Shown: positions 43,253 through 58,329 of the stretch, piece after piece
Layout: each line of letters begins with the position of its first letter
How positions within the stretch are numbered: position 1 is the first letter of the stretch
Origin: Gammaproteobacteria bacterium
GTDB taxonomy: Bacteria; Pseudomonadota; Gammaproteobacteria; Steroidobacterales; Steroidobacteraceae
Direction: 5' to 3'
DNA: 64,000 bases
NCBI GenBank assembly: GCA_028293725.1
Contig: JAQGOE010000156.1
Span: 47,619 to 111,618, forward strand
Notes under the pieces: model-generated
Told to the model about the DNA's origin: nothing
The model's database searches: none
Seen by the model: the letters and a program-made list of their open reading frames with translations, nothing else
Position numbers and translations under genes: made by a program

Positions 43253-44623
43253 ATGAGAATATCCCGAAAGCTACCCACTGAGACCCGTATGCTCGCCGCC
43301 GCCGGGGCAGTACTCCTGGTGCTAACACTCGGTAGCCAACCCGCACCCGCACGCTCCGAAGCCGCGCCCGCCCAGGCGCGTCATATCAACTCCGAACGTC
43401 TCCAGGGCACACTCGAGAAGTTGAGTGAGTTCGGCCGCAATCCCGAAGGTGGTGTCACCCGCCTCGGTTTTTCCCAGGCTGAGCTCGACGCACGCGCCTA
43501 CGTCATGGATCTCATGAAAGAGGCGGCGCTCGAGGTTCGCGTCGATCCGGCGGGGAATATTTTCGGCCGGCGCGCCGGCTCCGCAAAGCTACCGATCCTG
43601 CTGTTCGGATCGCACATCGACTCGGTACCGAAAGGGGGCGCTTTCGACGGGTCCGTAGGCACCTTGGGTGCCATCGAGGTTATCCGCGCTCTGAACGACG
43701 GACATGTCAAAACCCGTCATCCGCTCGAAGTCGTCGTCTGGACCAACGAGGAGGGACCCCACTTTGGAGTGAGTGCCCTGGGTTCCGGAGTGGCAGCGGG
43801 CTCCCTGGGGCCTGAGATTCTCGATCGGAAGGGTGAGGATGGACTCACGCTCGCCGACTGGCTGCGACGCTACGGACAAGATCCGGCACACCTGGCCGAT
43901 GCTCGCATTGCACGTGGCTCGTTAGCCGCCGTGATCGAGTTGCACATCGAGCAGGGCCCCAATCTCTATGAGACAAAAGTGCAGATCGGCATCGTGCAGG
44001 GGATCGTGGGTTTGAAGCGCTGGAAGTGCGTGGCGACGGGTGTTGCCAATCACGCTGGCACGACTCCCATGAATCGCCGCAAGGACGCTCTTGCCGCCGC
44101 AGCCCGCGATCTGTTGGTGGTCCGCGAAGTCGTACGGGCGGAATCGGGCCGCCAGGTCGGTACTGTCGGCTACATGAAAGCGGAGCCTGGGGCCGCCAAT
44201 GTCATTCCGGGGCGGGTGGAATTTCCTGTCGAGCTGCGCGATCTCGACGCTGCGAAGATCGAGCGCATGTGGGAACTCATTCAGCAACGGTTCGCTAAGA
44301 CGGATACCGAGGAGGGCGTTGAGACTCAATGTGTCGTGATCAACGACATCGCGCCCGCGCTGAGTGATCCATCGGTGCAGAACGCCATTCGGGAAGCCGC
44401 GCACACCGCCGGCCTGTCGACTGCCGACCTGCCCAGCGGCGCAGTTCACGACGCCGGCGAGATCTCCAGGATCGCGCCGATGGGCATGATATTCGTGCCG
44501 AGCCGTGACGGCATCAGTCATGCCCCCCAGGAATTCTCATCGTGGGACGACATAGCCAACGGTACCGAAGTCCTTTACCGCACCATTTTGCGGCTCGACC
44601 AAAGCAAGGCGGCGCGGCCTTGA
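43253..44623 (+). CDS. Exported M20-type amidase (hydantoinase/carbamoylase family)
   Basis: A 456-residue zinc hydrolase of the M20 carbamoylase/allantoate amidohydrolase group. A signal peptide (MLAAAGAVLLVLTLG) ends near ARSEA, so unlike most relatives it is exported. The metal ligands are His and Asp in GSHIDSVPKGGAFDG, Glu in TNEEGPHF, His in ELHIEQGP and the last His in ISHAPQEF. The dimerisation domain covers about residues 235-350. The family hydrolyses N-carbamoyl amino acids, allantoate or ureidoglycolate. The last 49 bases overlap the convergent S8 peptidase gene. ATG 43253 is preferred to an earlier in-frame codon. Confidence 0.9.
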   Translation: MRISRKLPTETRMLAAAGAVLLVLTLGSQPAPARSEAAPAQARHINSERLQGTLEKLSEFGRNPEGGVTRLGFSQAELDARAYVMDLMKEAALEVRVDPAGNIFGRRAGSAKLPILLFGSHIDSVPKGGAFDGSVGTLGAIEVIRALNDGHVKTRHPLEVVVWTNEEGPHFGVSALGSGVAAGSLGPEILDRKGEDGLTLADWLRRYGQDPAHLADARIARGSLAAVIELHIEQGPNLYETKVQIGIVQGIVGLKRWKCVATGVANHAGTTPMNRRKDALAAAARDLLVVREVVRAESGRQVGTVGYMKAEPGAANVIPGRVEFPVELRDLDAAKIERMWELIQQRFAKTDTEEGVETQCVVINDIAPALSDPSVQNAIREAAHTAGLSTADLPSGAVHDAGEISRIAPMGMIFVPSRDGISHAPQEFSSWDDIANGTEVLYRTILRLDQSKAARP

Positions 44624-47439
44624 GCAAATCGCCGCCGCCCTGCCACGAGGACTCCCGCGAAAAACGTCAGATCCAACCAATCGAGCGCGCCACCGCCGTG
44701 GCTGGGTGCAGTCACGGTCAGTGAGCCTGAAGCCGCAGCTGTGTTGCTGGCTTGCTGCGCGGACGTGAGCGCACTGGCGGCGATCGTATTCGTGTAAGTG
44801 CCGGCTGTGCCACTCGAGACGCTCACGGTAATCGTACAACTTCCACTGGCAGGGATCGTTCCGCTCGCCAGCGCCGCCGAACCGGTGGCGGACGACACGG
44901 AGCCGTTGCACGTGTTGGTTGCGGCGGGAGACGTCGCTACGCTCAGCCCGCTCGGCAGTGCATCCGTCAGTGCGACCTGGGTGAGAGGATAGGCGTTTGA
45001 GTTGCTCAGACTGATCGTGAGCGTCGAATTGGAGTTGGTGCTGACACTGGCCGGCGCAAAGGTCTCGGTAATTGTCGGTGCAACCGGTGCCGTAACGCTC
45101 AGTGTGGCGGTCGCAGTTGCGGTGTTGCCACCTGCCGGTCCCGTCGTGAGCGCGTTCGCTGCGATGTTGCTCGTGTAACTACCCGTCGCGGTGCTCGAGA
45201 CCGGAACAGTGACCGTGCAAGTACCCTTGGCAGGGATTATCGCTCCGGTGAGAGCGATGCTGGTGCCGCTCGCGACCAGGGAGACCGTGGCACCTGTGCA
45301 AGTCGTGGCGCCTTTTCCTGCGACGCTCAACGAACTCGGCAGCGTATCGATAAAATCCGACTGCGTTAGAGCAAACCCATTCGAGTTGCTCAAGGTTATC
45401 GTCAACGTGGATGCGACAGATGGTCCTGCTGTGGCGGGCACAAATGCCTCGGTTACGGTCGGTGCAACCGGAGTGAACGAGACCGCGCTCGTGCACGCAT
45501 TATTCCCCGCAGTCGTCGGCGCGGTGCTCGTAGCGCTTGTAGCGCCTACTGTGATGGTCGCGGCGTCGGTGGCCCCTTGCGAGTCGGTGACGGTAAGCGT
45601 CAGGGTGCCCGAACCTGTAACGCTAGCCTGTGAACTGTTGGCACCGGACGTGATGGTGAGGCCGCCGCTGGCGGTCCACGCATAAGACGCAATCGTGCGA
45701 TTGCAAGCGGCGGCGCTGCCGCTCCCATTGAATACGACTGCGCTGACCGCGGTATAGGTGGCTGGAAAAGCGACGGCCGCGATGGGTTTGAGCGCCGCGT
45801 TGACCGCGCTCAGAGCGTTGGCCATGCCGGTTCCACATTCTCCCGAGGACGGGCAGGAGCATTCTTCGGTTCCCGCCACGGACGCCGGGCATACCGGCAG
45901 AGCATTGGTGTTGGCCGGGAAGGGCGTGGCGCTCGATTCCAGGCGCGCCACCAACTGCTTCGGCGTCAGATTCCCGTTGACGGCGCGCATGAGGCCTGCG
46001 ATGCCCGACACGATGGGGGCCGAGAAGCTGGTGCCCAGGTTGGTGTTAGTCTGATTGGTGTAGCTATTCTGGCCGGGCGACGTTTTCCCGAGATTCGTGG
46101 TGGTATCGATCGAGCGCAGGCACGCGCCGCCGGTGTTGACGCAGTTGCCGGCGGGCGCCGAAATACCGACTTCCGGGCCGAAGCTGCTGTATCCCACCTT
46201 GGTGCCGACGTTACGGAGTCCGGCTATCGCGATCACGCCTGGTACTAACACGCTGCAGTTGGCGGGTGCCCCTACAGCGGTACTGGCGTTACCGGCAGAG
46301 ACCACGACCAGGGCGCCCATGCCCGTCACAGCCTTCAGTGCGATCTGATAGGCGCTGATGCAAGCACCGGTCCCCCCCAGGCTGAGATTGATGATATTGG
46401 CGGGGTAGGGGTTGTTGGGCACCGGCGTCGCCGCCGTGGACACCGACATTCCGGCGGCCCATTCGATGCCGGCGATGATGTCCGAGTCGTAACCGCCGCA
46501 CTTGCCGAGGGCCCTGACCGGCAGGATCCAGGAGCCCCAGGTCATGCCGGCGACGCCGACGCTGTTGTTTGTGATGGCGCCGAGAATTCCGACCACCCGG
46601 GTGCCATGCCAGGAACTGTCAGCGGTGGGGCAGCTACTGCTCGGAAACAGTGCGTTCTGCTGATCCGTGGCGGAGATCCAGTCACCCGGGTCGGTTGGAT
46701 CCGGATCCCAGCCGTCGCCGTCGTTCGCGACCAGGTACGTTCCCAATTGCGCGCCACTCGAACGATTTTCATCCCCGCTCACAAAATCGTAACCGGGTAG
46801 CAATCTGCCGCCCGTGCCAAGGCCGGCGCGCAGCAGATCGGGGTGATCGAAGCGCACGCCAGTGTCCACGTCGGCGATGACCGTTCCAGTATCCCCCGTG
46901 GTAATCGCCCAAGCCGACACCGCATCGGTCGCCGCCAGGTCAGTCGTCGCACTGCTGGGCGTCTGCATGTACCACTGTCCGGTCGCGCCCGACGTAGCCA
47001 CAAACAGCGGGTCGTTGGGTAGCGACGCGGGATAACGGCGTTCGTCGATGTCGGCGAACTCGACGGCGGGGTCGGCCCGCAGCGCGCTCAGCGCGGACTC
47101 AACATCAGCTCCATACAGTGTCTGTTGAAGCAGAATGACATGCATGCTCGGGGTGAGCTGCCGGGACTTCTTCATAGAAAGTCCAGCACGCGACGCGAGG
47201 CCCGAGACGTCGGCGACCGACGTTTGTGCCTGCACTATCGTCACGCTCTGCGCCCGATCATGGGGCTTGAATGTCTGCACCACCGAGTTGTTTGCGGTGG
47301 CGCGAAACCCCACGATCACCCGGTGCATTTCCGGGCCGATGCTCACCGGGTAGGTGCTGACAGGGTTGTATTCGGCGGCTGTTGCGGCAACGGTTGCGCC
47401 CAGCCCCAATACGATGAGTAGCCCGAAAATGCGCTGCAT
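44575..47439 (-). CDS. Secreted S8 (subtilisin-like) serine peptidase with GlyGly-CTERM-like tail
   Basis: A 954-residue secreted subtilase. The order is signal peptide (LLIVLGLGATVAATAA), inhibitor-I9-like propeptide to about residue 140, peptidase domain at about 160-560 with catalytic Asp192 (DVDTGVRFDHPDL), His278 (SSWHGTRVVG) and Ser471 (GTSFSAPIVSG), a PKD-like domain, then two similar DUF11-type repeats (TLTITLSNSNGFALTQ and TLTISLSNSNAYPLTQ). The end has a glycine run, a hydrophobic stretch and arginines (GGGALDWLDLTFF then AGRRR), resembling a GlyGly-CTERM sorting signal, but about fifteen residues follow. It should be cell-surface or secreted. Its 3-prime end overlaps the convergent amidase gene. 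Confidence 0.9.
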   Translation of the reverse strand: MQRIFGLLIVLGLGATVAATAAEYNPVSTYPVSIGPEMHRVIVGFRATANNSVVQTFKPHDRAQSVTIVQAQTSVADVSGLASRAGLSMKKSRQLTPSMHVILLQQTLYGADVESALSALRADPAVEFADIDERRYPASLPNDPLFVATSGATGQWYMQTPSSATTDLAATDAVSAWAITTGDTGTVIADVDTGVRFDHPDLLRAGLGTGGRLLPGYDFVSGDENRSSGAQLGTYLVANDGDGWDPDPTDPGDWISATDQQNALFPSSSCPTADSSWHGTRVVGILGAITNNSVGVAGMTWGSWILPVRALGKCGGYDSDIIAGIEWAAGMSVSTAATPVPNNPYPANIINLSLGGTGACISAYQIALKAVTGMGALVVVSAGNASTAVGAPANCSVLVPGVIAIAGLRNVGTKVGYSSFGPEVGISAPAGNCVNTGGACLRSIDTTTNLGKTSPGQNSYTNQTNTNLGTSFSAPIVSGIAGLMRAVNGNLTPKQLVARLESSATPFPANTNALPVCPASVAGTEECSCPSSGECGTGMANALSAVNAALKPIAAVAFPATYTAVSAVVFNGSGSAAACNRTIASYAWTASGGLTITSGANSSQASVTGSGTLTLTVTDSQGATDAATITVGATSATSTAPTTAGNNACTSAVSFTPVAPTVTEAFVPATAGPSVASTLTITLSNSNGFALTQSDFIDTLPSSLSVAGKGATTCTGATVSLVASGTSIALTGAIIPAKGTCTVTVPVSSTATGSYTSNIAANALTTGPAGGNTATATATLSVTAPVAPTITETFAPASVSTNSNSTLTISLSNSNAYPLTQVALTDALPSGLSVATSPAATNTCNGSVSSATGSAALASGTIPASGSCTITVSVSSGTAGTYTNTIAASALTSAQQASNTAAASGSLTVTAPSHGGGALDWLDLTFFAGVLVAGRRRFAQGRAALLWSSRKMVR

Positions 47440-50221: not shown

Positions 50222-50640
50222 TTGTCGTGAAGGACTGGTGTCGGAGTGTCGCGGACTGGCGTTTCAGAGCACCTCTCGGATGCCCGCCGCGACGGGTACC
50301 GCCAGGGGCTGTTTCTCGTCGCTCACGGGCCGGCCGTTCCCGTTGCCATTCCATCTTGGGGGCGAGGTGATCGAGCCTGTCGATTTCATCGAATCGCCGC
50401 CGAGCCAGCGTGTTGCGACGCGTCATCACGCTGAATAACGTGGAATTCCCAGCGCGGCGGCTCGCAATCGATTGACAAAGTACTCTCCAATAGACAACCG
50501 TGTGGGCGGATTCTCCACCCCTGACGAAGAGCTGCCGATTGGCCAGAGATTCAGCGAATCCACCGCTGCGGCGCCGGACGGGTGCGCGCAGCGCTGACAC
50601 GGCGCATGCGCCGAAGAAAGTGAAGTTCCCGAAGGCCCTG

Positions 50641-52641
50641 ATGGCGCAGGCACCCGGAACGGTGGTGGAGCACCTGTCCGAAGGGCTGCTGATCGTCGAT
50701 TCGACGGGCGAGTTCATTTATTGGAATCCCGCCGCGCTGCGAATGTACGGATTCGCCAGCTCGCAGGACGCCATCCGCAGCCTCGCGGACGCGCCGAAGT
50801 TGTTTGAGCTAACCACCCTGGAGGGCGTCGAGATAGCGCCGCAGGAGTGGCCGCTGGCGCGGGTGTTACGCGGCGAGAGCCTGTGCGACGTCGAGCTGAT
50901 AATCAGGCGCTTCTCACCGGCATGGACCCGGGTATTCAGATACGCCGGCTCCCGCGTGCACTATGCGGGAGGCAGATCGCTTGGCTTCCTGACTGTCAAC
51001 GATGTCACAGAACGGAAACAAACAGAGAAAGAGCTCGAGCGCGTCAGCCGGTTGAATGTCGCCCGTAGCCTCATCAACCAGGCGATCGTGCGTACAGTGG
51101 ATCGCGACAGCCTGTTCCAGCAGGTGTGTCAGATACTGGTGGAGAAAGGCGCCTGCGCCATGGTCTGGATCGGCTGGCACTCGCCCAGGACGCAGCGGCT
51201 GATGCCGGTGGCGCGGTGGGGTGATGAGAGCGGCTACCTTGGCGGCGTGGAAATTTATGCCGACGACCGGCCTGGTGGCCGTGGGCCTAGTGGGTTGGCA
51301 TTCCGACAAGGCAAGCCGTACGTCCGCAACGATGTTTGCGATGATCAGTCGGCCTTACCGTGGCGAGCCCAGTTCGAGCAGCTCGGCCTGCGCGCATCGG
51401 CGGCATTTCCGATCCGCCGCTCCGGAAAAGTGCGCGGAATCCTCACAGTCTATGCCCGCGAGGCCGGCTATTTTCGCGATAAGGAGGTCGCCCTGCTCGA
51501 AGAGGCGGCCGCCGATCTGTCGTTTGCGTTGGATCACTTCGCCAGCGAGGCCGCGCGCCGCCGTGCGCAGGTGCTCGTCGAGCGCGAGAGATCGTTTACG
51601 GATGCCATGATCGAAAGCCTGCCCGGCGTCCTCTATCTCTATGACGAGCACGGGCGTTTTCTGCGTTGGAATCGAAACTTCGTCGTGGCCACCGGCTATA
51701 CCGACGAGGAAATCGCGCGAATGCATCCACTGGATTTCTTCATCGGCCAGGATCGGGAGCGCGTCGCCCGGGAGATCCAGGTGACCTTCGACCAGGGCGA
51801 GTCCTGTGTCGAGGCTGCCTTCATGGCCAAGGACGGCAGCGCGAAGGACTATTTTTTCACGGGCAAGCGCATTGCCTTTGGCGGCGGACCGTGTCTCATC
51901 GGCATGGGTGTCGATATCGCCGTGCGTAAGAATGCCGAGGCGGCTACTGAACAGTACGCGCGCCGCCTGCAGGCAACCTCCCATCGCCTGCTGACGGTGC
52001 AGGAAGCCGAGCGGCGCACTCTTGCCCGGGAGCTGCACGACGCTGTTGGCCAGGAGCTCACCGCGCTGAGTCTCAACCTTACGATCATCGACGATGCGCT
52101 ACCGGACGTGACCCCGCCTAAAATCCGGGAACGCCTCGAAGACTCGCAGGGACTACTGGAAAAAACGACCTGCCACTTGCGCAACATCATGGTGGAGCTG
52201 CGACCCCCGGGCTTGGATGAGTTGGGTCTGCTGGCGGCACTGAAAGAGCATGTCGCCCAGGTGGCCCGGCGGTCCGAGGTCGAGATGAGCGTCGCCGGCA
52301 CGGAGCCGCAGCCACGACTCGCACCGACGGACGAGATTGCCCTGTTCCGTATCGCGCAGGAGGCTCTCAACAACATCGTGAAGCACGCCCGGGCCAGCGA
52401 AACCCAGGTCTCGTTGCGGCAGAATGCCCACTGCGTTGTATTGAGCATCACGGACAATGGCGTAGGCTTCGATACGGCGCGCAAGCCGATCATGGGCGGA
52501 TACGGCATGGGCACCACGACAATGCGCGAGCGGGCGGAGGCTATTGGCGGTAGGCTGCAGCTGCAATCGGCTCCGGGCGAGGGCACCCGGGTGACGGTTG
52601 AGTTGAATTGGCCGCCAGCGGCGTCAGAGACGCCACGGTAA
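50641..52641 (+). CDS. PAS-GAF-PAS histidine kinase (NarL/DegS class)
   Basis: A 666-residue soluble sensor kinase. A PAS domain at about residues 8-120 has LIVDSTGEFIYWNPAALRMYG. A GAF domain spans about 135-305 with CAMVWIGWHSP and AAFPIRRSGKVRGILTVYA. A second PAS at about 315-430 has YLYDEHGRFLRWNRNFV. The HisKA_3 domain carries His466 in RELHDAVGQELTAL, and the ATPase has NNIVKHARAS and DNGVGFD. Such kinases pair with LuxR-type regulators, and one follows 15 bases later. The start is uncertain: I use the ATG at 50641, just before the PAS domain; a GTG at 50500 would add 47 residues of odd composition. Confidence 0.88.
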   Translation: MAQAPGTVVEHLSEGLLIVDSTGEFIYWNPAALRMYGFASSQDAIRSLADAPKLFELTTLEGVEIAPQEWPLARVLRGESLCDVELIIRRFSPAWTRVFRYAGSRVHYAGGRSLGFLTVNDVTERKQTEKELERVSRLNVARSLINQAIVRTVDRDSLFQQVCQILVEKGACAMVWIGWHSPRTQRLMPVARWGDESGYLGGVEIYADDRPGGRGPSGLAFRQGKPYVRNDVCDDQSALPWRAQFEQLGLRASAAFPIRRSGKVRGILTVYAREAGYFRDKEVALLEEAAADLSFALDHFASEAARRRAQVLVERERSFTDAMIESLPGVLYLYDEHGRFLRWNRNFVVATGYTDEEIARMHPLDFFIGQDRERVAREIQVTFDQGESCVEAAFMAKDGSAKDYFFTGKRIAFGGGPCLIGMGVDIAVRKNAEAATEQYARRLQATSHRLLTVQEAERRTLARELHDAVGQELTALSLNLTIIDDALPDVTPPKIRERLEDSQGLLEKTTCHLRNIMVELRPPGLDELGLLAALKEHVAQVARRSEVEMSVAGTEPQPRLAPTDEIALFRIAQEALNNIVKHARASETQVSLRQNAHCVVLSITDNGVGFDTARKPIMGGYGMGTTTMRERAEAIGGRLQLQSAPGEGTRVTVELNWPPAASETPR

Positions 52642-52656
52642 GGATGGGGGCAGTCG

Positions 52657-53298
52657 ATGCGTACGACGGTATTCGTGGCCGACGACCACGCCATCCTGCG
52701 GGATGGCCTGGCCACGCTGCTGGCGGCACAATCCGACATGGAAGTCGTTGGGACGGCTGGCAACGGTCGTGAAGCCGTCGCAGGGGTTTTGCGGCTGGCT
52801 CCCCGGGTTGCGATCATCGACATCTCGATGCCCGAACTCGATGGAATAGAGGCGGCCCGCCAGATCCTCGCCGGCAACCCGGAAGTGCATGTCATGATCC
52901 TCTCGATGCATGCCGGGGCCCAACATGTCTTCCACGCCCTGGAAGCGGGCGTGCGCGGCTACCTGCTGAAGGAATCGGCGAGCCGGGAAGTGATCGAAGC
53001 GGTACGGATCGTACAATCCGGCCGGCGCTATCTGAGTCCGCGAGTCGCCGAAATCGTCGCCCAGGGAGTGAGCGACCGTAGTGCAGTCAGCCCCTTGAGC
53101 AGTCTCAGCCAGCGTGAGCGCGAAATCCTCAAACTGGTCGCCGACGGCCATTCCAGTGCCCGGATCGGGGTCATGTTGCATCTTTCCCCGAAGACGGTGG
53201 ATACCTATCGCAGCCGCATGATGCAGAAGCTCCACGTGTCGGATCTTGCGGGAGTTATCAAACTTGCCATTCAGCATGGGTTGACGTCGCTCGAATAG
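52657..53298 (+). CDS. LuxR/NarL-family response regulator
   Basis: A 213-residue response regulator. The receiver domain (1-120) has Asp9 and Asp10, phospho-acceptor Asp55 in IIDISMPELDG, and Lys in YLLKESAS. The C-terminal LuxR-type helix-turn-helix is LSQREREILKLVADGHSSARIG followed by HLSPKTVDTYRSRMMQKL. It begins 15 bases after the PAS/GAF kinase and should be its partner. Targets are not evident in the window. The combination with a lone receiver and a c-di-GMP protein downstream suggests control of a switch between free and attached life, which is an inference from context. Confidence 0.92.
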   Translation: MRTTVFVADDHAILRDGLATLLAAQSDMEVVGTAGNGREAVAGVLRLAPRVAIIDISMPELDGIEAARQILAGNPEVHVMILSMHAGAQHVFHALEAGVRGYLLKESASREVIEAVRIVQSGRRYLSPRVAEIVAQGVSDRSAVSPLSSLSQREREILKLVADGHSSARIGVMLHLSPKTVDTYRSRMMQKLHVSDLAGVIKLAIQHGLTSLE

Positions 53299-53384
53299 CG
53301 CTAACATCTAGAACTCCCTACAGGCGCGCCTCGCCGGGGAGGCTACAGTCGGGCGGTTGATTCACTTCCAGACGTATTTCATCC

Positions 53385-53789
53385 ATGCGTAGTCCCGACG
53401 CGACCGTCACGCTCCTGGTCGTAGACGACCATGCCGGAGTCCGACAGACGGTCATGGCGCTCGTATCCACGGAGTTTCCGCAGTTCCGGCTGTTGGAGGC
53501 CGAATGCGCCGAGGACGCGCTGACCCTGTGCGGGATCGAGCAACCGGACCTGATCGTTCTCGACATAACGCTGCCCGGTATGGACGGATTCGAGGCGACC
53601 CGGCGCATCAAGGCGGCCTGGCCCGCGATCGTCATTGTGATGCATTCGAGCAGCGACATGCCCGTTTACCGGGACGCCTCCCTCGCGGCCGGCGCCGCGG
53701 CGTTCGTAGGCAAAGGCCGCAACTCCCGGACGCTGGTCCCGATCATTGCCGGCCTGCTGCCTGCTCAGACCGCACCCCCGAGCCGCTGA
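53385..53789 (+). CDS. Single-domain response regulator
   Basis: A 134-residue receiver without an output domain. The acidic pair is Asp14 and Asp15 in LLVVDDHAG, the phospho-acceptor Asp60 in LIVLDITLPGMDG, and the conserved Lys appears in AAFVGKGRNS. Its receiver is most like those of NarL-type regulators. It may act as a phosphate sink or an adaptor for the nearby kinase. It follows the LuxR-type regulator by 86 bases on the same strand. A 169-base gap then leads to the GGDEF/EAL gene; it contains two direct TATTCAG copies and no gene. Confidence 0.88.
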   Translation: MRSPDATVTLLVVDDHAGVRQTVMALVSTEFPQFRLLEAECAEDALTLCGIEQPDLIVLDITLPGMDGFEATRRIKAAWPAIVIVMHSSSDMPVYRDASLAAGAAAFVGKGRNSRTLVPIIAGLLPAQTAPPSR

Positions 53790-53958
53790 ACTCGCCGCCT
53801 ATTCAGCGGATATTCAGTCCTGGCGGGCGGCCTACTGCCCAGTCAAGATCTCCCTACATCATTAGTCCCGGACTCCCGGCTTTGCCGCCCGTCCCGTCGC
53901 CCTAGGATTCGCGCCCCGATCGGCCTTCATTGAAGGGTCGTTCAACGGAGCCGAATCG

Positions 53959-56211
53959 ATGTCGAGCGCCCCCCTGCCTGACAATGAACGCGAGCGCCAA
54001 CTGGCCCTCTACGAGTGTGACATTCTCGACACGCCTCGCGATCCGTTGTTCGACAGCATTACCACGCTGGCAGCCCAGGTTTGTGAGGCTCCGATTGCTC
54101 TGTTCAGCCTCATCGACCAGCAGCGGCAATGGTTCAAGTCCAATCATGGTCTGCCGGACATCCGGCAGACGTCGCGCGACATCGCCTTCTGCGCCCACAC
54201 CATTCTGAGCGGGGAGATGTTGGAGATTCCGGACGTGCTCGATGACGCCCGTTTTTTTGACAATCCCCTCGTCGTATCGGACCCGAAGATCCGCTTTTAC
54301 GCCGGAATCCCCCTGCGCGACGCCCGTGGGTTCGGGCTGGGCGCACTTTGTGTCAAAGACTATCGGCCCCGGCGCCTCTCGCCTTCCCAACGTCTCGCGC
54401 TCGAGAGCCTCTCGCGGCTGGCAATCTCGCTCCTCGAGCAACGTCGCGGCGAGCGCAGACTCCGGGTTTCGGAACAGCAGGCGTTGGAACGCGAGCATCG
54501 GCAAAAGCTGATTGCCGATCTGGGGCAACGGGCTCTGGCGGATCCTGACGCGGACGCGCTCATGCAGAATGCCGTCCGGTTGGTCAACGAGACGCTGGGC
54601 TTCGAATATTGTCGCGTGCTGGAGATCGCGCACGGCGGGCTGAGCCTGCTGTCCCGTGTGACCGTTGGATCGGCTCCGGATGGGGCCGACCCGGGTAGCC
54701 GTGTAGCGGCCCTGATATCCGGGCCCGAGGGACCCTACGGCCTGCTCGAAGTCCGTAGTGCCACGCCGGGTCGGGTGACTGCCGAAGTCACCAACTTCGT
54801 GCAGAGTGTCGCCAACATAGTCGGCACTGCGTTGGCGCGTCGCCGGGCCGATGAGCAACTCTCCTATGCAGCGCAATTCGACACCCTGACGGGCCTTCCC
54901 AACCGGCAGTTGTTTCGCGACCGCATTGCCCAGTCGATCTCCCGCGCCGTGCGCAAGAGCCGCCCGATCGCTGTCGTGGCGCTCAATCTCGATGGCTTCA
55001 AACTGGTCAACAACGGACACGGTCATGCCGCCGGCGACCGGATGCTGGTACAGGTCGCCGAGCGCTTGATCTCCTGTGTCAGCGCCTATGACAGCGTCAG
55101 CCGGCTGGGCGCGGACGAGTTCGCGATAGCCCTGTCCAACATCGAGCAGGTGGAGGAAGTGGCCCCGGTGGTGCAGCGGATGCTGCATACCCTCGCGCAA
55201 CCGTTCGACCTCGACGATGGCGAGGCGTTTATTTCTGCGACCGCTGGCGTATCGATCTTCGATACCGACGGTGGCGATGCGCATACCCTGATCAAGAATG
55301 CCGAGCTGGCGATGCACCGGGCGCGGGAGAAGGGCCGTAGCTTCTACGAGTTTTTCGCACCTGAAATGAATCAGCGCGGCCTCGAGCGCATGCGGCTCGA
55401 GCGCGGCCTGCGGCGCGCGCTGGAGCGCAGGGAGTTCCTGCTTCATTACCAGCCGAAGATCTGCGCCGCCACGGGGAAAATCCGCGGTGCCGAGGCGTTG
55501 TTGCGTTGGCAACACCCGGAGCGCGGGCTGGTGCTGCCGGGCGAGTTCATACCGATTCTCGAGGAGACCGGGCTCATCGTACCCGTGGGCCTGTGGGTGC
55601 TGGAGACCGCCTGCGAGCAGATCCGTCGCTGGGCCCGGGCCGGCATCGACGTCGAGTCCATCAGCATCAATCTGTCGGCGCGCCAGTTCCAACAGTCGAA
55701 CTTCGATGCCCACATTCGCAGGGTGATCGAGTGCTCCGGCATCTCGCCCGGCAAGATCGAGCTGGAGATCACCGAATCCATGCTGATGCACGATCCGGGT
55801 CAGGCGATTCAGACCCTGACGCGGCTGAAGCAACTCGGCGTGTCGCTGTCCGTCGATGATTTCGGCACGGGCTATTCGGGCCTGTCCTACTTACGGCAGT
55901 TGCCGCTCGATTCGCTCAAGATCGCGCGTAATTTCATCAGCGACATCACCCAGCATCCGGAGGATGCGACCATTGCGCTGGCCATCATCAATCTCGCCCA
56001 TAACCTGGGCCTGCAGGTCGTTGCTGAAGGCGTTGAGACCGAGGCGCAGGCGCGGTTTCTAGCCGCGCATCGCTGCAACTTTCTGCAGGGTTTCTTCTTC
56101 TCGCTGCCGCTCGATGCGGACGCCTATGGCAGGTTGGAGGTCACGCGGGATCTGCCGCGGCTCCCGTGGGTCTCGCACGACGGGGCCCTGGTATTGCCGT
56201 TCCACAAGTAG
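53959..56211 (+). CDS. GAF-GAF-GGDEF-EAL cyclic-di-GMP protein with degenerate GGDEF
   Basis: A 750-residue soluble protein. An N-terminal GAF domain (about 20-165) has FDSITTLAAQVCEAPIALFSLID. A second GAF-like region runs to about 295. The GGDEF domain follows (TLTGLPNRQLFRDRI), but its active-site loop is LGADEF at residues 383-388, so cyclase activity is doubtful. The EAL domain has Glu512 in RGAEALLRWQHP, then SINLSARQF, IELEITESMLM, SVDDFGTGYSGLSYL and VVAEGVETEAQ, so phosphodiesterase activity looks possible. The LKIARNF segment has Ala where LKID is usual. The GGDEF part may only bind GTP as a regulator. Confidence 0.9.
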   Translation: MSSAPLPDNERERQLALYECDILDTPRDPLFDSITTLAAQVCEAPIALFSLIDQQRQWFKSNHGLPDIRQTSRDIAFCAHTILSGEMLEIPDVLDDARFFDNPLVVSDPKIRFYAGIPLRDARGFGLGALCVKDYRPRRLSPSQRLALESLSRLAISLLEQRRGERRLRVSEQQALEREHRQKLIADLGQRALADPDADALMQNAVRLVNETLGFEYCRVLEIAHGGLSLLSRVTVGSAPDGADPGSRVAALISGPEGPYGLLEVRSATPGRVTAEVTNFVQSVANIVGTALARRRADEQLSYAAQFDTLTGLPNRQLFRDRIAQSISRAVRKSRPIAVVALNLDGFKLVNNGHGHAAGDRMLVQVAERLISCVSAYDSVSRLGADEFAIALSNIEQVEEVAPVVQRMLHTLAQPFDLDDGEAFISATAGVSIFDTDGGDAHTLIKNAELAMHRAREKGRSFYEFFAPEMNQRGLERMRLERGLRRALERREFLLHYQPKICAATGKIRGAEALLRWQHPERGLVLPGEFIPILEETGLIVPVGLWVLETACEQIRRWARAGIDVESISINLSARQFQQSNFDAHIRRVIECSGISPGKIELEITESMLMHDPGQAIQTLTRLKQLGVSLSVDDFGTGYSGLSYLRQLPLDSLKIARNFISDITQHPEDATIALAIINLAHNLGLQVVAEGVETEAQARFLAAHRCNFLQGFFFSLPLDADAYGRLEVTRDLPRLPWVSHDGALVLPFHK

Positions 56212-56235: not shown

Positions 56236-57972
56236 ATGAGGGTTATTGGCCTGATGAGCGGCACGTCGATGGACGGAGTCGATGTCGCGGTCCTGGAAAC
56301 GGATGGCGCCGATCGGGTCGTCTCCGGGCCCTGCCTGGGCGTTGCGTACCCAACCGGTCTGCGCGCCGCGCTGCTGCGTCTTGGACCCGATGATCCAGCG
56401 GTACCCCATCTCGAAAAAGAGGTGACCGATCTGCAGGCGCAGGCGGTGCGCGCCTTCTGCTCGGCGCAGAGGATCGAGCTCGCCACGCTCGATGGGATCG
56501 GGTTTCACGGCCAAACCATCCGACATGAGCCGCAACGGGGCCGGACCTGGCAGCTTGGAGATGGACAGCGGATGGCGACTGCCCTGGGGATCAGGGTCGT
56601 GAACAACTTTCGCCAGAATGACATGGATCACGGAGGTCAGGGCGCACCACTCGTGCCGGCGTATCACCGCGCGCTCGTTCGCTCACAACGGATTGCCGAA
56701 CCGGTTGCTGTCCTGAATATCGGTGGTGTCTCCAATGTCACTCTCGTCGATGGCGACCTGCTGTTTGCCTGCGATTGTGGTCCCGGCAACGCCCTGATCG
56801 ATGACTGGGTTAGTGCGCGTTGCGATGTTCCGTTTGACGACGGTGGTGAGATCGCCGCAGCAGGCTCGATCGACGAGCACGCTTTGACGGTTCTGCTGGA
56901 GAGCCCCTATTTCCAGCGAGTCGGTCCCAAGTCATTGGATCGGAACGCCTTCTCACTCGATGCAGTAGCGAATCTCTCCCCGCGGGACGGCGCTGCGACG
57001 TTGGCGGCATTTACGGCCGCTGCCGTGGCTGTCGAGGCGGAGCGTCTGCCGTGTCGGCCGAAGACGTGGATCGTAGTGGGAGGCGGCCGGCTGAACAGGT
57101 ACCTACTTGCCCAGCTGCGAAGTCGTCTGGGCGCGGTGGTTCTGACGGCGGAGGAGTTTGGTTGGGCAGGCGGTGCGATCGAGGCGCAGGCATTCGCTTA
57201 CCTCGCGGTGAGGTCGCTCCGCGGGTTGCCCCTGACTTGGCCCGGGACGACGGGGGTGTCGGAGCCGGTAAGCGGTGGCGTTTGTTGGAACCCCGTACCG
57301 TTCCCCGACACGCGTGCCGTACTGTTTGATCTTGACGGCACGCTCCTCGATACGGCGCCTGACATGGCGGCGGCACTCAACACGCTGCGCCGGGAAGAGG
57401 GGCTCGAGCCGCTTGCATTCGCGGATGTTCGTCCGCTCGTCTCGAACGGCTCGACGGGCCTGCTGCGGTTGTCATTCCCGCAGGTCGCGGGCCCGCCTTT
57501 CGAGGTTCTGCGCGAGCGTTTTCTCGATATCTACCGCGCGAGTCTGGCCGCTGGGACTCGGCTCTTTGCAGGCATGCAGGGGGTTCTCGAGCGCCTCGAG
57601 GCCAACCACATCGCCTGGGGGATCGTCACCAACAAGCCCGGCTGGCTCACCGAGCCGCTGCTCGAGAAGCTGGGTCTGCGTCAGCGGGCCGGTGTGGTCG
57701 TCAGCGGTGACACCTTGTTGGCGCGAAAGCCCGACCCCGCGCCGCTGCTGCACGCGGCCACCGCGCTGGGTCTGAGTCCAGCCGAATGTATCTACATCGG
57801 TGATGCCGAACGGGATGTGTTGGCAGCGCGGGCCGCCGGGATGCGCGTGTATGTGGCGATGTTTGGCTACATCCCGGCCCAGGAGCGACCGCGCGAGTGG
57901 CCGGCAACCGGCTGGCTCGAAGGGCCGGAGGCGGTCGCGCAACTTCTCGACGCGCTCCCGCCTCGTCCCTGA
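56236..57972 (+). CDS. anmK: Anhydro-MurNAc kinase fused to a MupP-like HAD phosphatase
   Basis: A 578-residue bifunctional protein. Residues 1 to about 345 are anhydro-N-acetylmuramic acid kinase: VIGLMSGTSMDGVDVA, GFHGQTIRHEP, VNNFRQNDMDHGGQGAPLVPAYH, NIGGVSNVTL, CGPGNALID and VVGGGRLN. This part phosphorylates and opens 1,6-anhydro-MurNAc to MurNAc-6-phosphate. Residues 360-578 form a HAD phosphatase: nucleophile Asp365 and Asp367 in VLFDLDGTLLDTAPD, IVTNKPGW, Lys in LARKPDPAP and IGDAERDV. In Pseudomonas, MupP, a HAD protein of this type, removes the phosphate from MurNAc-6-phosphate. One chain would perform two consecutive recycling steps. No frameshift is seen; the frame is open across the joint. 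Confidence 0.93.
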   Translation: MRVIGLMSGTSMDGVDVAVLETDGADRVVSGPCLGVAYPTGLRAALLRLGPDDPAVPHLEKEVTDLQAQAVRAFCSAQRIELATLDGIGFHGQTIRHEPQRGRTWQLGDGQRMATALGIRVVNNFRQNDMDHGGQGAPLVPAYHRALVRSQRIAEPVAVLNIGGVSNVTLVDGDLLFACDCGPGNALIDDWVSARCDVPFDDGGEIAAAGSIDEHALTVLLESPYFQRVGPKSLDRNAFSLDAVANLSPRDGAATLAAFTAAAVAVEAERLPCRPKTWIVVGGGRLNRYLLAQLRSRLGAVVLTAEEFGWAGGAIEAQAFAYLAVRSLRGLPLTWPGTTGVSEPVSGGVCWNPVPFPDTRAVLFDLDGTLLDTAPDMAAALNTLRREEGLEPLAFADVRPLVSNGSTGLLRLSFPQVAGPPFEVLRERFLDIYRASLAAGTRLFAGMQGVLERLEANHIAWGIVTNKPGWLTEPLLEKLGLRQRAGVVVSGDTLLARKPDPAPLLHAATALGLSPAECIYIGDAERDVLAARAAGMRVYVAMFGYIPAQERPREWPATGWLEGPEAVAQLLDALPPRP

Positions 57973-58329
57973 TTACTCCTGCGTCGCTGCGCGCGCCTCC
58001 AAGGTCACGGGGCTGGTCACCTCCGTCGTGAAATCGCGCAATGTCGCGATCTGATCGCCCTTCATTTCCACCAGCAGCAGATGCTCCGACGTGTTGACGG
58101 TGTAACGGACAAACACGGTGTTCGCGTCGGCAGTGGGAAATACCCAGACGTCTGCTATGGGTCCGTGGACGTACTGACGCACGGCGTGATTTGAACGCTC
58201 GATGAGATCCGCATTTGCCGCTGATTGCGTTATAGCCGGCGTGTTGACGGGGTCCGCGGCGAACGCGCCGTAGGTACTCGTCGTCAATAGCAGCGCGGTG
58301 GCCAGAGCGAAGACGTTGGGGCGATTCAT
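57973..58329 (-). CDS. Small exported protein of unknown function
   Basis: A 118-residue protein with a signal peptide (ALATALLLTTSTYGAFA) and a mature part of about 94 residues with no family I recognise. Strands such as IADVWVFPTADANTVFVRYTV and EHLLLVEMKGDQIATLRDF suggest a small beta-rich domain. The stop codons of this gene and of the AnmK fusion abut without a gap. A GGGCATATGCCC site matching that of the marR promoter lies 45 bases upstream of its ATG, so the MarR regulator probably controls it. Length and signal suggest a periplasmic protein. Confidence 0.75.
   Translation of the reverse strand: MNRPNVFALATALLLTTSTYGAFAADPVNTPAITQSAANADLIERSNHAVRQYVHGPIADVWVFPTADANTVFVRYTVNTSEHLLLVEMKGDQIATLRDFTTEVTSPVTLEARAATQE

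What the first reader, a model, noticed from the sequence alone, without database searches (positions are those of the whole stretch)
56236..57972. AnmK and a MupP-like phosphatase fused in one polypeptide
A single frame joins a complete anhydro-MurNAc kinase (residues 1 to about 345) to a complete HAD phosphatase (360-578) with its nucleophile Asp365. In Pseudomonas, AnmK makes MurNAc-6-phosphate and MupP, a HAD phosphatase, removes that phosphate before AmgK and MurU act. The fusion would channel the intermediate and commits the cell to the AmgK/MurU route. The joint has only about 15 residues of linker. I cannot say whether this fusion is already described.
Basis: partly seen in the sequence, partly recalled or inferred. 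Interest (0 to 1): 0.8.

Follow-up and report, generated by a model that had tools for sequence, protein, structure and literature searches.

The report
Two cell-wall recycling enzymes fused
One bacterial gene joins the kinase that phosphorylates a recycled cell-wall sugar to a phosphatase of the kind that takes that phosphate off again, so two consecutive steps of a known recycling pathway probably sit on one protein chain.

Summary
In detail: 56236-57972 (+) is one 578-aa frame, AnmK (to 350/353) joined by 6-9 residues to a HAD phosphatase (from 359/360). Four homologues (97, 69, 64, 63%) have the complete fusion; two truncated records show the same joint. The HAD part resembles HADs lying beside ubiG, as does the one MupP found over the NCBIfam cut-off; it lies outside an rpe-linked Gph group (100/99) and is MupP-type at four motif positions. 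Against: some Gphs are closer to it in raw identity than that MupP, and an AU test is indecisive. Genomes with ubiG-linked HADs carry MurU over cut-off (49 of 53) and no MurQ (0 of 53). In unfused relatives the genes are probably neighbours (14 equal contig lengths, 1.2 expected).

Best reading: a bifunctional enzyme making MurNAc from anhydro-MurNAc via MurNAc-6-phosphate. Channelling and commitment to AmgK/MurU are untested: no genome is held, and no amgK/murU/murQ homologue was found in the window. No paper found by our searches describes the fusion. Known chemistry, apparently undescribed architecture.

The parts
56236..57972 (+). anmK-mupP fused ORF, 578 aa
   Evidence: fused homologues
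56236..57285 (+). AnmK domain (residues 1-350)
   Evidence: Pfam PF03702 270.6 bits; NCBIfam NF007141 464 bits over cut-off; fold match 3qbw TM 0.91 by target length
56773..56775 (+). codon of D180, aligned with position 182 of P. aeruginosa AnmK (catalytic Asp, recalled)
57286..57312 (+). linker, residues 351-359 at most
   Evidence: gap between models; length varies among fused homologues
57313..57969 (+). MupP-like HAD phosphatase domain (residues 360-578)
57328..57330 (+). codon of nucleophile D365 (DxDGT motif)
57802..57804 (+). codon of D523 in the GDAERD motif

Best explanation
A bifunctional peptidoglycan-recycling enzyme. The N-terminal AnmK half opens and phosphorylates anhydro-MurNAc with ATP to MurNAc-6-phosphate; the C-terminal MupP-like HAD half hydrolyses that phosphate through an aspartyl intermediate at D365 and releases MurNAc, presumably for AmgK and MurU. 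Shown here: the single frame, both complete domains with their motif residues, homologues with the same architecture, and resemblance of the HAD to the ubiG-linked group that includes a MupP over the NCBIfam cut-off. Inferred: the substrate of the HAD, the net reaction, and the downstream route. Ancestry, inferred: an adjacent anmK-mupP pair that fused more than once, or was split repeatedly.
For: Domains and motif residues. Fused homologues P0002-P0005, P0223, P0243. HAD: phmmer bits 164 to the MupP L081, 114-155 to seven rpe-linked Gph-like, 95 to E. coli Gph (the margin over the best Gph-like is small); the 8 rpe-linked rows form their own group, 100/99, without the window; MupP-type at 4 of 4 motif positions. 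NCBIfam MupP model above Gph model NF009695 for the window (171 vs 153 bits), as for ubiG-linked L006 (203 vs 158), L081 (407 vs 154) and P0133 (177 vs 153), the reverse in rpe-linked L116 (144 vs 295). ubiG upstream of this HAD type within about 1.5 kb in 30 of 32 loci and 30 of 30 (L081 included); rpe beside 8 of 8 Gph loci (several genomes occur in both sets, and L001 and L032 are one gene). The ubiG query is UbiG over cut-off. MurU over cut-off in 49 of 53 genomes with ubiG-linked HAD against 23 of 40 with weak or no MupP-family match; MurQ over cut-off in 0 of 53 against 1 of 40. Unfused relatives: 14 equal contig lengths between AnmK and HAD hits, 1.24 expected. Literature: MupP of P. 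putida is over 100 times faster with MurNAc-6P than with GlcNAc-6P (PMC5371407, passages).
Against: The HAD misses the NCBIfam MupP cut-off (171 of 359 bits) and just reaches that of TIGR01449 phosphoglycolate phosphatase (180 of 180). L006 and P0133 also pass TIGR01449, but the MupP L081 does not (168); the MupP model was over cut-off in only 1 of 185 genomes. In raw identity the window's HAD is 40% to L081 but 45-48% to the Gph-like L112, L117 and L116. L081 is remote on the trees, and in the quick tree lies on the Gph side of the midpoint root, on a weak branch of 73. The AU test does not reject a tree in which the window's clade is held with Gph against the other ubiG-linked HADs (p 0.442, lnL difference 2.71). 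No host genome, no assay, no gene of the downstream route nearby.
Confidence: 0.75

Rival explanations
1. Bifunctional enzyme without channelling (a narrower form of the best explanation, so the odds overlap): two neighbouring co-transcribed genes fused by loss of the stop codon between them, with no kinetic gain; the fusion only fixes a 1:1 ratio.
For: Fused and unfused forms are mixed on the trees (4 changes at least for 5 fused of 121 AnmK rows; 5 changes for 7 fused of 16 labelled HAD rows). Linkers are short and vary. HADs of this or a related kind are found fused to UbiG-type, SDR, RmuC and PF00494 proteins.
Against: AnmK and MupP are consecutive enzymes, which those other partners are not as far as I know; by eye the joint is clean in the six fused homologues, while those of P0244-P0246 look frameshifted.
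Confidence: 0.5
2. The HAD half is a phosphoglycolate phosphatase or a phosphatase of another sugar phosphate, fused by accident to AnmK.
For: TIGR01449 reaches its cut-off, and the best NCBIfam model PRK13226 is named phosphoglycolate phosphatase (205 of 342 bits); some Gph-like HADs are closer in raw identity than L081; AU test not decisive.
Against: Outside the rpe-linked Gph group, none of the four Gph motif types; closest genome relatives are ubiG-linked (50-62%) and co-occur with MurU; P. aeruginosa PA3172 (MupP) was itself annotated phosphoglycolate phosphatase (PMC5371409, passage).
Confidence: 0.14
3. Assembly or sequencing artefact: a lost stop codon or frameshift joins two separate genes.
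For: The window's source is not known, and several UbiG-HAD joins in the database look like frameshifts.
Against: Fused homologues at 97, 69, 64 and 63% identity on contigs of other lengths, and two truncated ones with the same joint; codon-position GC is alike in both halves.
Confidence: 0.03

Closest known systems
AnmK (P. aeruginosa, 3qbw and others)
   Same: Whole fold, D180 aligned with position 182, 37% identity in the fold match
   Different: The AnmK chains matched in the PDB are 345-371 residues and hold AnmK alone; the window's AnmK has a HAD behind it. Its 15 listed plasmid hits (of 351) are 41-48.5% and, as far as I recognise the names, alphaproteobacterial
MupP (P. putida PP_1764, P. 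aeruginosa PA3172)
   Different: MupP is a separate protein, its gene beside ubiG in L081; here it is the C-terminal half of AnmK and no ubiG is found in the window; 40% identity to L081, below the MupP model cut-off
[quoted passage not shown]
   Same: HAD phosphatase fused to the enzyme that makes its phosphorylated substrate; seen as titles in the fold search and as the start of the abstract of PMC6291793 in a listing
   Different: Other partner and substrate; HAD N-terminal there (residues 12-186), C-terminal here
Gph (E. coli, phosphoglycolate phosphatase)
   Same: HAD fold; 33% identity to E. coli Gph, up to 48% to other rpe-linked Gph-like HADs
   Different: rpe-linked, separate group, other motif types

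Membership tests
AnmK (anhydro-N-acetylmuramic acid kinase) | Full-length family profile over curated cut-off | tested here: met
   PF03702 270.6 bits (cut-off 24); NF007141 464 (cut-off 352)
AnmK (anhydro-N-acetylmuramic acid kinase) | Catalytic Asp of the DxGPGN motif (Asp182 in P. aeruginosa; role recalled) | tested here: met
   D180 aligned with position 182 of 3qbw
AnmK (anhydro-N-acetylmuramic acid kinase) | ATP-dependent conversion of anhMurNAc to MurNAc-6P | not testable with these tools
   needs assay
MupP (MurNAc-6-phosphate phosphatase) | NCBIfam NF009696 cut-off | tested here: not met
   171 of 359 bits; the model is narrow: over cut-off in 1 of 185 genomes
MupP (MurNAc-6-phosphate phosphatase) | Groups with ubiG-linked MupP-type HADs rather than rpe-linked Gph | tested here: inconclusive
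   for: outside the 100/99 Gph group, MupP-type at 4 of 4 motif positions chosen after looking; against: a tree with the window's clade held beside Gph is not rejected, p 0.442, and L081 is only 40% identical
MupP (MurNAc-6-phosphate phosphatase) | HAD catalytic motifs | tested here: met
   D365, D367, T465, K498, D523
MupP (MurNAc-6-phosphate phosphatase) | Co-occurs with amgK/murU and without murQ in the same genome | tested here: inconclusive
   host genome not held; for other genomes with ubiG-linked HAD, murU over cut-off in 49 of 53 and murQ in 0 of 53; amgK not searched in genomes
MupP (MurNAc-6-phosphate phosphatase) | Specific MurNAc-6P phosphatase activity | not testable with these tools
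   needs assay
Gph (phosphoglycolate phosphatase) | TIGR01449 cut-off | tested here: met
   180 of 180 bits; not diagnostic, since ubiG-linked L006 and P0133 also pass
Gph (phosphoglycolate phosphatase) | Inside the group of rpe-linked Gph | tested here: not met
   the 8 rpe-linked rows are one side of a branch without the window, 100/99; no Gph-type motif in 4; a sister place to Gph is not rejected

The most novel reading that the evidence does not exclude
A recurrent, selected fusion: in one lineage of mostly uncultured bacteria, mupP left its usual place beside ubiG, came to lie next to anmK, and fused with it several times over, giving a bifunctional anhMurNAc-to-MurNAc enzyme that keeps MurNAc-6-phosphate from accumulating and pulls the AnmK step forward.
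Probability: 0.3. Interest if true: 0.6.

Novelty: new variant of a known kind. Interest (0 to 1): 0.48.

Why it matters
The authors who characterised P. putida MupP wrote that the benefit of dephosphorylating MurNAc-6P and phosphorylating again, instead of using a mutase, is unclear, and suggested a pull towards product (PMC5371407, passage). A natural AnmK-MupP chain would make that directly testable with one purified protein. It also ties a MupP-like HAD to AnmK independently of Pseudomonas genetics, and supports reading HADs that are named phosphoglycolate phosphatase but lie beside ubiG as MupP.

Tried and rejected
Artefact of assembly: rejected because of fused homologues at several distances.

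A named host: not reached. No whole genome is held. Order-level searches around genomes with good HAD or AnmK matches found no AnmK above 49% identity in the listed matches; one with P0107 as query found at most 35%. In a class sample of 369 genomes the best match was E 1.1e-77, HAD part only, so no fused gene like this one was seen. A phylum sample of 398 found AnmK at most 55% identical to P0107 in the listed rows. NCBI labels of relatives P0107 and P0133 say Steroidobacteraceae: a lead, not a test.

Other AnmK fusions: long open frames around AnmK in some genomes looked by eye like spurious open frames, with no HAD in the AnmK frame (12 regions fetched; one region, L135, has a HAD of 87 bits elsewhere).

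Viral contigs: no relative. Promoter scan: 0 sigma-70-like sites; 5 terminator-like sites, the nearest after the stop at 58046. Rfam and tRNA scans of the window: nothing.

AU test aimed at excluding Gph kinship: did not reject.

Full report
Observation. The frame 56236-57972 (+) encodes 578 aa without a stop. Residues 1-350 match positions 1-364 of 367 of Pfam AnmK, and 362-540 match 1-177 of 178 of HAD_2. The NCBIfam AnmK model NF007141 scores 464 bits against a cut-off of 352 over residues 1-353. The linker is thus 6-9 residues. HAD motifs lie at D365/D367, T465, K498 and D523, all invariant in the five fused sequences aligned. D180 aligns with position 182 of P. aeruginosa AnmK. No in-frame ATG/GTG/TTG lies between 342 and 376; a GTG at 341 could in principle start a separate HAD. 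AlphaFold2 on a 90-row alignment gives mean pLDDT 94.9 and pTM 0.81. Foldseek finds AnmK 3qbw (TM 0.91 by target length) and HADs such as 2hsz (0.83).

The fusion is real and recurs. Of the 120 best relatives listed (of 7998 found), 4 carry both domains by their Pfam labels: P0002 (97%), P0003 (69%), P0004 and P0005 (63-64%). A search with the HAD part, restricted to proteins long enough to be fusions, gave 107 proteins; 5 carry the AnmK domain (P0002-P0005 and the truncated P0243). P0223 is a further truncated fusion. Linkers differ in length and sequence. On a FastTree tree of 121 AnmK domains the 5 fused rows need at least 4 changes; on the HAD tree 7 fused among 16 labelled rows need 5 (the 9 unfused rows were my choice, and the bootstrap had not settled). 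Either several fusions or several splits took place.

Unfused relatives probably keep the genes together. Comparing the longest-contig lengths of 119 AnmK and 119 HAD hits gives 14 equal pairs; 1.24 are expected with lengths jittered by up to 5%, the highest of 2000 trials being 7. P0006 and P0234, which have no contig length, were left out; the AnmK list includes the 4 fused hits, none of which pairs. Some of these contigs are only about 2.5 kb, which leaves room for little else; one pair (1724 bases) seems too short for both genes end to end and may be chance. This is indirect: I could not read those contigs.

What the HAD is. In genomes reached here, relatives of this HAD lie within about 1.5 kb downstream of ubiG in 30 of 32 loci (L007 and L017 not) and 30 of 30 (several genomes occur in both sets, and L001 and L032 are one gene). 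The ubiG query is UbiG by NCBIfam, 291 bits against a cut-off of 103. The 8 rpe-linked rows form one side of a branch with support 100/99, and the window is outside. At four motif positions that I chose after looking at the sequences, 52-54 of 55 ubiG-type HADs have one form and 7-8 of 8 rpe-linked ones the other (at the cap position 4 of 8 rpe-linked also match the first pattern); the window and the six fused homologues have the ubiG-type form at all four.

Results against this. The NCBIfam MupP cut-off is missed (171 of 359) and TIGR01449, phosphoglycolate phosphatase, is just reached (180 of 180); ubiG-linked L006 and P0133 also pass TIGR01449, L081 does not (168). Raw identity to L081 is 40%, below the 45-48% to Gph-like L112, L117 and L116, though ubiG-linked HADs reach 62%. 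L081 is remote on both trees, and in the quick tree lies on the Gph side of the midpoint root on a weak branch (73). An AU test does not reject a tree with the window's clade held with Gph against the rest (p 0.442). So MupP rests on gene neighbourhood, motifs and co-occurrence more than on close kinship to a tested MupP.

Pathway fit. Of 53 genomes with a ubiG-linked HAD locus, MurU is over its cut-off in 49 (misses G262, G001, G164, G047) and MurQ in 0. Of 40 genomes of the same sample with a weak (E worse than about 1e-37, 32 genomes) or no (8) MupP-family match, MurU is over cut-off in 23 and MurQ in 1, with one more MurQ-like match below it (G063, 220 bits) (Fisher p 0.0001 for MurU, 0.0009 without three genomes of at most about 1 Mb). 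Small or incomplete genomes may still explain part of the difference. MurU is also frequent without this HAD (23 of 40), so the link is one-sided. The window has no tblastn match to a MurU of G165, to the ORF beside it whose best NCBIfam model is AmgK (330 bits, below the 550 cut-off), or to E. coli MurQ. Of the window's genes I scanned 20 others against families and saw none of peptidoglycan recycling. Upstream are signalling genes, downstream a convergent small ORF without a Pfam match and a MarR gene.

Mechanism. Shown: the architecture and the motif residues. From established knowledge: AnmK makes MurNAc-6P from anhMurNAc; MupP hydrolyses it, specifically (PMC5371407, start of abstract and passages; PMC5371409, start of abstract and passages). 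Inferred: this chain does both. Channelling is possible but no test here supports it. The search that finds AnmK fusions also finds HADs of this or a related kind fused to methyltransferases of UbiG type (16 of 107 by my count of Pfam labels, two of them without a HAD label, some only about 30% identical), SDR (4), RmuC (5) and PF00494 proteins (5). Three of these mirror gene neighbourhoods: ubiG upstream, rmuC-like and hpnC genes downstream (the hpnC query passes its NCBIfam cut-off, the rmuC query matches below its cut-off). So fusion alone is weak evidence for function. What is special here is that the partner is the preceding enzyme of the pathway, and that no ubiG lies in the window.

Known or new. 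Full-text searches with MupP/AnmK/AmgK/fusion (4 papers), AnmK/phosphatase/fused (9), MupP/peptidoglycan recycling/gene fusion (89 holding two terms, 20 listed) and AnmK/MurQ/fusion protein/bifunctional/muramic acid (6 holding four terms) showed no report of an AnmK-MupP fusion. I judged by titles, starts of abstracts, and passages of four papers (PMC5371407, PMC5371409, PMC13046382, PMC11980594). Most subscription papers are not in that library, and domain-architecture databases were not searched. The closest parallel in kind is MtlD of Acinetobacter, where a HAD phosphatase is fused to the enzyme that makes its substrate. Verdict: a new variant of a known kind.

Noticed in passing
proteins P0122, P0123, P0124: Near relatives (94-96% in the HAD) in which only the first 6-12 residues of AnmK precede the HAD, with three different joints: AnmK-deleted in-frame forms of the fused gene, or assembly artefacts.
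   Followed up: partly
proteins, e.g. P0244, P0242, P0261, P0251: HADs of this or a related kind also occur fused to UbiG-type methyltransferases, SDR, RmuC and PF00494 proteins; by eye the joints of P0244-P0246 look frameshifted.
   Followed up: partly
L088: In G018 an anmK homologue (39%) lies just upstream of ubiG and the MupP-like HAD, a second arrangement that brings anmK and mupP together.
   Followed up: no
L078:6001-7883: Sphingopyxis plasmid pRW412b has anmK and a gph-named HAD convergent and overlapping by 22 bases, near nagA and a SIS-domain gene; that HAD scores only 99 bits with the window's.
   Followed up: no
window 56236-57285: The AnmK half has plasmid homologues at 41-48.5% (15 of 351 listed, alphaproteobacterial as far as I recognise the names) and a fold match of 37% to Pseudomonas AnmK, while the HAD half is up to 62% identical to ubiG-linked HADs; the two halves may have different histories.
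   Followed up: no
window 50500-56211: Just upstream: a PAS/GAF histidine kinase, a LuxR-type response regulator, a lone receiver and a GAF-GGDEF-EAL protein on the same strand; no link to the fused gene tested.
   Followed up: no
window 44575-47439 (-): Subtilase-family peptidase (S8) with two DUF7933 stretches and a PKD-like domain.
   Followed up: no
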